Below, in pieces: positions 26,269-27,273 of a stretch of DNA of 64,000 nucleotides. Numbering within the stretch: position 1 is the stretch's first letter; every line of letters begins with the position of its first letter. Below the pieces are notes generated by a model, which was not told the DNA's origin, did not search any database, and saw nothing but the letters and a program-made list of their open reading frames with translations. Source of the DNA: Ilyobacter polytropus DSM 2926. Lineage in GTDB: Bacteria; Fusobacteriota; Fusobacteriia; Fusobacteriales; Fusobacteriaceae. Both the position numbers and the translations under genes were made by a program. The stretch lies in contig NC_014632.1 in NCBI RefSeq assembly GCF_000165505.1, positions 930,001 to 994,000 on the forward strand, given 5' to 3'.

Positions 26269-26469
26269 TTAAACAGTTTTGATGTTAGAAGCTTGAGGAC
26301 CTTTTTGCCCTTGAGTGATTTCAAAAGTTACTTGCTCTCCCTCTTCTAAAGTTTTGAATCCGTCTTTTTGAATTTCAGAGAAATGTGCGAATACATCTGT
26401 TCCCTCTTCAGAAGTGATGAATCCGAATCCTTTTTCTCCATTAAACCATTTTACAGTTCCCTTTACCAT
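26269..26469 (-). CDS. Cold-shock protein (CspA family)
   Basis: 66 residues from the ATG at 26469, placed 7 bases after ggaggt; the frame extends five more codons upstream without support. It starts [18 protein letters not shown] and holds both RNA-binding motifs: KGFGFI (RNP1) and VFAHF (RNP2). Such proteins bind single-stranded RNA or DNA and act as RNA chaperones. The region upstream to the next feature is AT-rich and about 290 bases long, consistent with the long leaders typical of cold-shock genes. Confidence 0.95.
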
Positions 26470-26760
26470 TTGTAATACCTCCATAAATTTTGTTTTGAAA
26501 TTTAGAACAATTTTTAACTACATCATCACAAAACTTATAAAGTATTGAACGAAAATTAGAAATAAATTTTATTCTTAATAACTGAGTACAGTCTAACATA
26601 TATAACAAAAATAGTAAAGGAAATATTTTAAAGACAATTCTTTCTTGTAGATTTAATATCTTATCTAGGACATAAAATTATATGTATTAATGAAATTTAA
26701 TGAGGTTTTAGTGTCTAAATAATTCAAAGTATTTTATCAATAAATTGTTTTAATAAATTA
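26470..26760 (-). promoter_or_regulatory. AT-rich upstream region of the cold-shock gene
   Basis: About 290 bases with no plausible gene. It must hold the promoter and leader of the cold-shock gene. I could not place a convincing promoter or a defined RNA fold in it. Confidence 0.3.
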
Positions 26761-26788
26761 AAAAAGAGGGCTTGTTTACCAAGCCCTC
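26761..26788 (-). terminator. Strong terminator of the candidate noncoding RNA
   Basis: Nine base pairs (gagggcttg/caagccctc) with a 5-base loop, followed on the minus strand by at least five Ts. There is no protein gene before it on that strand for several hundred bases. Confidence 0.85.
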
Positions 26789-27110
26789 CCACAGTGAAAC
26801 ATCACTTTGTTTATTTAATACTTACTAAGAAACCTAAACCTTTAAATACCTAACTGTTGATTTAAATGACTTTTAAACAGTTAATGGTGCTTCAAATCTA
26901 AAACTAAATGTCTTCTTGAAATTCTTAAAAAAACTAACATGGTATTTATGATGCCGTCTTACTTGAAAATCCCTTCGGACATCACGTTCGAAACAGAATA
27001 ACTTAAACATTAAATCAAATTAATACGTGGATATTACCTACTTAAAACTTTAATCTTCTAAACCAGTCACTTAATCAACCTATCGATGCTCACTGTGAAG
27101 ATAGAATACG
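26761..27110 (-). ncRNA. Candidate structured noncoding RNA with its own terminator
   Basis: No ORF explains this block, yet it is richer in G and C than its flanks and highly paired. On the minus strand cacagtga (27090-27097) at the 5' end pairs with tcactgtg (26790-26797) at the 3' end, and the adjoining catc and gatg pair too, so the ends of a chain of about 310 nt are closed together. Inside are the hairpin taactgtt...aacagtta flanked by acc/ggt, and a paired block tgatg...catca. Right after the closing stem comes the terminator gagggcttg-gtaaa-caagccctc with a run of Ts. RNase P, tmRNA, SRP RNA and 6S RNA hallmarks are absent. Both ends are approximate. Confidence 0.65.
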
Positions 27111-27130
27111 CCACAAATATTAATAATAAC

Positions 27131-27161
27131 TTAAAATGAAATTAATATAATTTCATTTTAA
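27131..27161. promoter_or_regulatory. 14-bp inverted repeat upstream of the noncoding RNA
   Basis: ttaaaatgaaatta (27131-27144) and taatttcattttaa (27148-27161) are perfect inverted copies with a 3-base spacer. The site lies just upstream of the candidate RNA (minus strand) and about 110 bases before the VOC gene (plus strand). It may be an operator or a cruciform; which regulator binds is not known. Confidence 0.5.
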
Positions 27162-27273
27162 AATTGAATAGCGATATTTGAGATAATAATTACCGTATTT
27201 TAAATTTGAAAATTAGAAACTTGTGATATAATTAGACTGATAATTATAAAAAAAGAAATTTAGGTGAAAAAAT

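What the first reader, a model, noticed from the sequence alone, without database searches (positions are those of the whole stretch)
26761..27110. Unassigned structured noncoding RNA of about 320 nt
Seen: a gene-free block on the minus strand whose two ends pair (cacagtga with tcactgtg, plus catc with gatg), with at least two further long-range pairings inside, followed at once by a strong terminator and no ORF. Known families with comparable size were checked by eye: no RNase P conserved blocks, no tmRNA CCA end or tag frame, no SRP core, no 6S-like bubble. Inference: an independent noncoding RNA, possibly a family restricted to Fusobacteriota.
Basis: partly seen in the sequence, partly recalled or inferred. 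Interest (0 to 1): 0.8.

Follow-up and report, generated by a model that had tools for sequence, protein, structure and literature searches.

The report
Genus-restricted structured noncoding RNA of Ilyobacter
Next to a cold-shock gene, the marine mud bacterium Ilyobacter polytropus and its two nearest sequenced relatives carry a conserved stretch that looks like a gene for a folded RNA of about 310-340 bases, which is not a protein gene and not any RNA in the reference library; what it does is unknown.

Summary
Minus strand 27100-26764 of the window (Ilyobacter polytropus DSM 2926, chromosome I) carries a gene-free block whose ends pair and which ends in a strong intrinsic terminator. No Rfam family reaches its cut-off. 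The block is 90-91% identical in the two other genomes of its genus, while the flanks fall to 41-66%; the block has sharp edges and includes about 60 bases of upstream DNA. Folding is much better than in shuffles (z -4.4 for one sequence, -4.3 for the alignment). Changes between species break fewer pairs of the structure predicted from one sequence than expected (p about 0.015 in each of two comparisons, which are not independent). There is no two-sided covariation, because only three close sequences exist. tmRNA and RNase P lie elsewhere in the genome, and a 6S-like RNA lies behind aspS, so it is none of these. Covariance models found it in 3 of 98 Fusobacteriota genomes, all in one genus, so 'restricted to Fusobacteriota' is too wide on present evidence. 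The 45-codon ORF inside is not conserved. It is most likely an independently transcribed, trans-acting RNA; target or partner unknown. Transcription itself was not testable here.

The parts
27101..27160 (-). Conserved upstream DNA, presumed promoter region of the RNA gene (AT-rich; invariant TGGCGTA close to the presumed 5' end)
   Evidence: Alignment of the three genomes: 40-column windows here have 68-80% invariant columns, against 15-42% further upstream. No sigma-70 consensus site was found within it on the minus strand, so 'promoter' is inferred from position and conservation.
26764..27100 (-). Structured noncoding RNA, about 310 nt plus terminator; 5' end inferred, not mapped
   Evidence: 90-91% identical in G001 and G002 over the full length; fold z -4.4, alignment fold z -4.3; no Rfam hit; no conserved ORF.
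27084..27097 (-). 5' arm of the closing stem P1 (CACAGTGAGCATCG)
   Evidence: 100% of cells paired in three genomes, two one-sided A-U to G-U changes.
26790..26804 (-). 3' arm of the closing stem P1 (TGATGTTTCACTGTG), directly adjacent to the terminator stem
   Evidence: invariant in three genomes.
27039..27059 (-). 5' strand of the long inner helix (19 predicted pairs)
   Evidence: invariant, so neither supported nor contradicted by covariation.
26828..26848 (-). 3' strand of the long inner helix
26888..26995 (-). Long arm; most of the variation between species lies in its distal part (10 pairs with one-sided pair-preserving changes, 2 with only unpaired departures); apical loop CAUAAAUACC (26950-26941) invariant and unpaired
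26849..26887 (-). 3' hairpin (TAACTGTT...AACAGTTA), nearly invariant
26764..26790 (-). Intrinsic terminator GGGAGGGCTTGGTAAACAAGCCCTCTT + T run
   Evidence: stem invariant in three genomes while the loop varies.
26485..26640 (-). Separately conserved leader of the downstream cold-shock gene; not part of the RNA
   Evidence: 70-100% invariant, separated from the RNA by a poorly conserved spacer (26640-26745) with a 33-nt length difference.
26269..26484 (-). cspA-type cold-shock protein gene, 71 aa; neighbour
   Evidence: orthologue in the same place in G001 and G002.

Best explanation
Minus strand 27100-26764 is a stand-alone noncoding RNA gene. A conserved upstream region starts the transcript, which folds into a closed molecule held by the end-to-end stem P1, with a long inner helix, one variable arm and one invariant 3' hairpin; it is ended by the intrinsic terminator directly behind P1. 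It most likely acts in trans as a regulatory RNA, through an exposed invariant loop (the best candidate is the apical loop CAUAAAUACC) pairing with an mRNA. Supported here by comparison: the discrete unit, its noncoding nature, folding and conservation in one genus. Inferred: transcription, the 5' end and trans action. Unknown: target or partner. I put about 0.85 on 'independent structured RNA gene' and about 0.45-0.5 on the regulatory, loop-pairing mode of action.
For: Own terminator and sharp conservation edges at about 27160 and 26764 with unconserved DNA on both sides. Identity 90-91% against 41-66% in the flanks and 79-85% for two neighbouring protein genes. Fold z -4.4; alignment z -4.3 against column shuffles. 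With the structure taken from G000 alone, substitutions in the two relatives break 2 and 5 pairs where 5.8 and 9.7 are expected (p 0.015 and 0.014). The only sizeable ORF is not conserved and indels are not multiples of three. Single copy. The longest invariant, unpaired run is the apical loop CAUAAAUACC.
Against: No expression data. No pair with changes on both sides, so single helices are not proven. The promoter is not recognisable by consensus. The complement of the apical loop, searched in three genomes with up to 2 mismatches, matched only somewhat more often than a reversed control, and the 12 matches inspected lie inside coding sequence, not at gene starts; base pairing by that loop is therefore only a guess. 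The near-uniform conservation of the core is also what a protein-bound RNA would show.
Confidence: 0.5

Rival explanations
1. A stand-alone structured RNA whose core serves as a protein-bound scaffold or sponge (working like 6S, SRP or raiA/ModT RNA), not by pairing with mRNAs.
For: Invariant core (closing stem, inner helix, 3' hairpin) with variation concentrated in one peripheral arm, a pattern typical of protein-bound or tertiary-structured RNAs. No pairing target found for the best candidate loop. The base-pairing sRNAs described in F. nucleatum have C-rich seeds (PMC11005410), which this RNA lacks.
Against: No protein partner can be named; narrow distribution is unusual for housekeeping ribonucleoproteins.
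Confidence: 0.3
2. A cis-acting leader or attenuator of the downstream cold-shock gene cspA: the terminator would be conditionally read through into cspA.
For: Same strand, next gene is cspA in all three genomes; cspA mRNAs are known for long, temperature-sensitive leaders (established knowledge).
Against: The spacer between terminator and cspA leader is not conserved and differs by 33 nt; cspA has its own conserved leader region 26640-26485, weakly similar to the Rfam cspA thermoregulator model, whose match also spans coding sequence; no antiterminator: the terminator's 5' arm pairs with upstream RNA at best at -7.3 kcal/mol against -19.4 with its own 3' arm.
Confidence: 0.1
3. A conserved DNA element or remnant (for example a decayed gene or mobile element) without an RNA product.
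For: No expression data. Overall identity (90%) is only moderately above coding neighbours (79-85%) and below tmRNA (95%).
Against: Fold z-scores, pair-preserving substitutions, invariant terminator stem with a variable loop, no similarity to phage or plasmid records.
Confidence: 0.08
4. A diverged member of a known housekeeping RNA (tmRNA, RNase P, SRP or 6S RNA).
For: Comparable length to tmRNA and RNase P; RF00013 finds no 6S in this genus apart from one sub-threshold match in G001.
Against: tmRNA at C1:1783369-1783712, RNase P at C1:217960-218300, and a 6S-like RNA behind aspS at about C1:480345-480708 all lie elsewhere in the same genome; no Rfam match in the region. SRP RNA was not located, but nothing in the region matched the SRP models.
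Confidence: 0.02

Closest known systems
Large bacterial regulatory RNAs with paired ends (RNAIII of Staphylococcus aureus, VR-RNA of Clostridium perfringens; from memory)
   Same: Stand-alone gene of a few hundred nucleotides, AU-rich, intrinsic terminator, narrow taxonomic range; RNAIII also has a long-range closing helix
   Different: No sequence relation known; no C-rich seed loops; no known target; no conserved encoded peptide
6S RNA (RF00013)
   Same: Stand-alone, closed rod-like RNA
   Different: The genome has a separate 6S-like RNA behind aspS; no RF00013 match here; about 310 nt instead of about 190
tmRNA (RF00023) and RNase P RNA (RF00010)
   Same: Similar length, ends paired
   Different: Both present elsewhere in the genome; no match here
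raiA motif / ModT RNA (PMC11706538, abstract only)
   Same: Structured independent RNA that is not a riboswitch
   Different: No Rfam match; raiA is found in more than 2,500 species, this one in one genus
FoxI and FoxJ sRNAs of Fusobacterium nucleatum (PMC11005410)
   Same: Same phylum; discrete sRNAs
   Different: FoxJ has a C-rich seed and lies upstream of ylmH near the 4.5S RNA gene; no such seed and a different locus here
cspA thermoregulator (RF01766)
   Same: Adjacent gene is cspA
   Different: The weak RF01766 match lies on cspA and its own leader, not on this RNA

Membership tests
Any Rfam 15 family | Covariance-model score at or above gathering cut-off | tested here: not met
   No match in the window; permissive search of region and of orthologues gives no credible match on the RNA
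6S RNA | RF00013 match, or being the genome's 6S locus | tested here: not met
   No match; a 6S-like RNA with the motifs of RF00013-positive relatives lies between aspS and argS in G000
tmRNA | tRNA-like ends and tag frame, RF00023 / ARAGORN | tested here: not met
   ARAGORN none in window; the tmRNA is at C1:1783369-1783712
RNase P RNA | RF00010 match | tested here: not met
   RNase P RNA at C1:217960-218300 with 305.6 bits; no match here
SRP RNA | RF00169 / RF01854 match | tested here: not met
   No match in the region; own SRP gene not located
cis-regulatory leader of cspA | Conserved link to the downstream gene and an alternative (anti)terminator pairing | tested here: not met
   Spacer not conserved, separate leader, no antiterminator; neighbour order itself is conserved in the three genomes
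Independent structured noncoding RNA | Own terminator, conserved noncoding block with edges, fold better than chance | tested here: met
Independent structured noncoding RNA | Significant two-sided covariation | tested here: inconclusive
   0 pairs with changes on both sides; only three sequences at 90% identity
Independent structured noncoding RNA | Discrete transcript | not testable with these tools
   No expression data available

The most novel reading that the evidence does not exclude
The RNA is the first recognised member of a new class of large structured RNA that works with a protein partner or with tertiary structure of its own, and it is present in other Fusobacteriota in forms too diverged for the present models.
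Probability: 0.1. Interest if true: 0.7.

Novelty: new member of a known kind. Interest (0 to 1): 0.36.

Why it matters
It adds a well-delimited, testable noncoding RNA candidate in a phylum that has few characterised ones. It also shows that a reader of raw sequence can pick a conserved RNA-like block that Rfam passes over. Without a transcript or a target it remains a candidate.

Tried and rejected
6S reading: attractive at first because RF00013 finds no convincing 6S in this genus, rejected when a 6S-like RNA was found behind aspS. Weak BLAST hits in other genera (L004-L015) lie in or overlap coding sequence as far as inspected and are taken as chance. An exact 19-base motif in 84,980 species gave three unrelated genomes; a 16-base motif in viral contigs gave 63 scattered matches, not read one by one, taken as chance. 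Phages and plasmids: none. Relatives at cold-shock genes of G006, G011 and G012 (233 kb) and at the sepF-type gene of eight genomes (149 kb): no credible model match and no shared neighbourhood of the RNA. The R2 match in G010 (E 0.14) is not convincing by eye. Pairing target for the apical loop: nothing at gene starts among the matches inspected. A 45-codon peptide: not conserved. The 7-base match AAAUACC (26947-26941) / GGUAUUU (26850-26844), invariant, could be an alternative or pseudoknot pairing, but a match of that length can arise by chance and was not tested further.

Full report
What was checked. The minus strand of 26761-27110 was read. The ends pair as described: CACAGTGA (27097-27090) with TCACTGTG (26797-26790), and CATC with GATG just inside. 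A strong intrinsic terminator (26790-26764) follows at once. No Rfam family reaches its cut-off anywhere in the window, and the permissive search of the region gives only terminator-like or chance matches. No tRNA or tmRNA is in the window. The predicted fold is -85.1 kcal/mol against -65.0 +/- 4.6 in shuffles, z -4.4, none of 100 as low.

Where it is. The window lies at C1:930001-994000 of a genome of 3,132,314 bases whose first contig has 2,046,464 bases. These are exactly the sizes published for Ilyobacter polytropus DSM 2926 and its chromosome I (PMC3035301), a marine anoxic-mud bacterium of the Fusobacteriaceae. The RNA lies upstream of, and on the same strand as, a cspA-type cold-shock gene; on the other side is a VOC-family gene (my reading of its sequence) in the opposite orientation.

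Conservation. A DNA search of 61 related genomes finds full-length matches only in the two other genomes of the genus (90 and 91% identity); all other matches are short, and those inspected lie in or overlap coding sequence. In the three-genome alignment the block from about 27160 to 26764 has 68-97% invariant columns in its 40-column windows, while upstream (41-65% pairwise identity) and the spacer to cspA (42-66%) are poorly conserved. For comparison, tmRNA is 95% identical among the same genomes, cspA 94-98%, and two neighbouring protein genes 85 and 79%. The block therefore evolves more slowly than those ordinary genes and faster than tmRNA. Its terminator stem is invariant while the loop differs. 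The 45-codon ORF on the RNA strand is broken in both relatives, and indels are of 1 and 2 bases, so it is not a protein gene.

Structure. The consensus fold has a closing stem P1, a second interrupted helix, a long inner helix (19 pairs, invariant), a long arm with most of the variation, a small variable hairpin, and a nearly invariant 3' hairpin. Against shuffles of alignment columns within conservation classes, the consensus energy has z -4.3, though at least one of 150 shuffles came as low. When the structure is taken from the I. polytropus sequence alone, the substitutions in the two relatives break 2 and 5 pairs, where 5.8 and 9.7 are expected if the same substitutions fell on random positions with the same base (p 0.015 and 0.014). 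The two tests share ancestry and are not independent. No pair has changes on both sides, which with three sequences at 90% identity is not informative; the 19-pair helix never varies, so the comparison says nothing about it.

Distribution. A covariance model of the full RNA searched over 98 Fusobacteriota genomes of 29 genera finds only the three genus members; a model of the 3' domain over 39 genomes gives the same, apart from one unconvincing match at E 0.14. These searches use a seeded first look, so strongly diverged homologues can be missed. Direct model searches at cold-shock loci of the near genera (233 kb) and at the syntenic sepF-type locus of eight genomes (149 kb) found nothing credible. 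An exact-motif scan of 84,980 species gave three unrelated chance matches; phage and plasmid records gave none. 'One genus' is therefore the observed range, not a proven limit. As a yardstick, the intergenic region with the 6S-like RNA is 96-98% identical within the genus and about 70% between genera; an RNA that is only 90% identical within the genus could easily fall below detection elsewhere.

Is it a known housekeeping RNA? tmRNA is at C1:1783369-1783712 and RNase P RNA at C1:217960-218300. 6S needed more work: RF00013 finds it in other families of the order but not convincingly in this genus. In several relatives that do match, the gene lies behind aspS; the same place in I. polytropus and most of its family holds an RNA with the same motifs (GGCCTAA, TTGGC.CTG, TCACG, ACGGA..CTGTAT, CTGACTACCAC, GCGACCAAAA), one of which (L176) matches RF00013 below cut-off with E 2e-4. 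So the RNA under study is not the 6S RNA. The SRP gene was not located, but the region does not match the SRP models.

Mechanism. That the block is a discrete, noncoding, folded transcription unit is well supported by comparison but not by expression data. A role as cspA leader is unlikely: the spacer is not conserved, cspA has its own conserved leader, and there is no antiterminator pairing. Between trans-acting modes the evidence does not decide. The longest invariant unpaired stretch is the apical loop CAUAAAUACC (26950-26941), a candidate pairing site, but its complement does not recur at gene starts among the matches inspected, and its frequency is not far from the reversed control. The invariant core with a variable arm fits a protein-bound RNA as well. 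I commit to a trans-acting regulatory RNA as most likely (about 0.45-0.5), with a protein-bound scaffold or sponge as the main rival (about 0.3).

Verdict. A well-supported, apparently uncatalogued structured RNA candidate, conserved in one genus, function unknown.

Noticed in passing
Own genome C1 about 480345-480708 (L166:346-709), and equivalents L167-L171, L173-L177: A 6S-like RNA lies between aspS and argS in I. polytropus and most Fusobacteriaceae examined, yet the Rfam 6S model misses it in most of them; the Rfam family could be widened with these sequences. L172 (G014) showed none at that place.
   Followed up: partly
window 26485-26640, minus strand: The leader of the cold-shock gene is itself almost invariant among the three genomes (93-100% in its last 100 bases), suggesting its own regulatory structure.
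   Followed up: no
window about 27180-27273: An NADPH-dependent FMN reductase-like gene lies between the RNA and the VOC gene in G002 (L003:2009-2644) and in shortened or interrupted reading frames in G001 (L002:2218-2657), but is absent at this place in I. polytropus.
   Followed up: no
L039 (G001:C2:1377249): The weak RF00013 match in G001 lies in a stretch of GC-rich sequence that looks foreign to this genome, possibly contamination, an acquired island or a mis-joined contig.
   Followed up: no
window 26947-26941 and 26850-26844: Invariant 7-base complementarity AAAUACC / GGUAUUU between the apical loop and the base of the 3' hairpin; possible alternative or pseudoknot pairing, but could be chance.
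   Followed up: no
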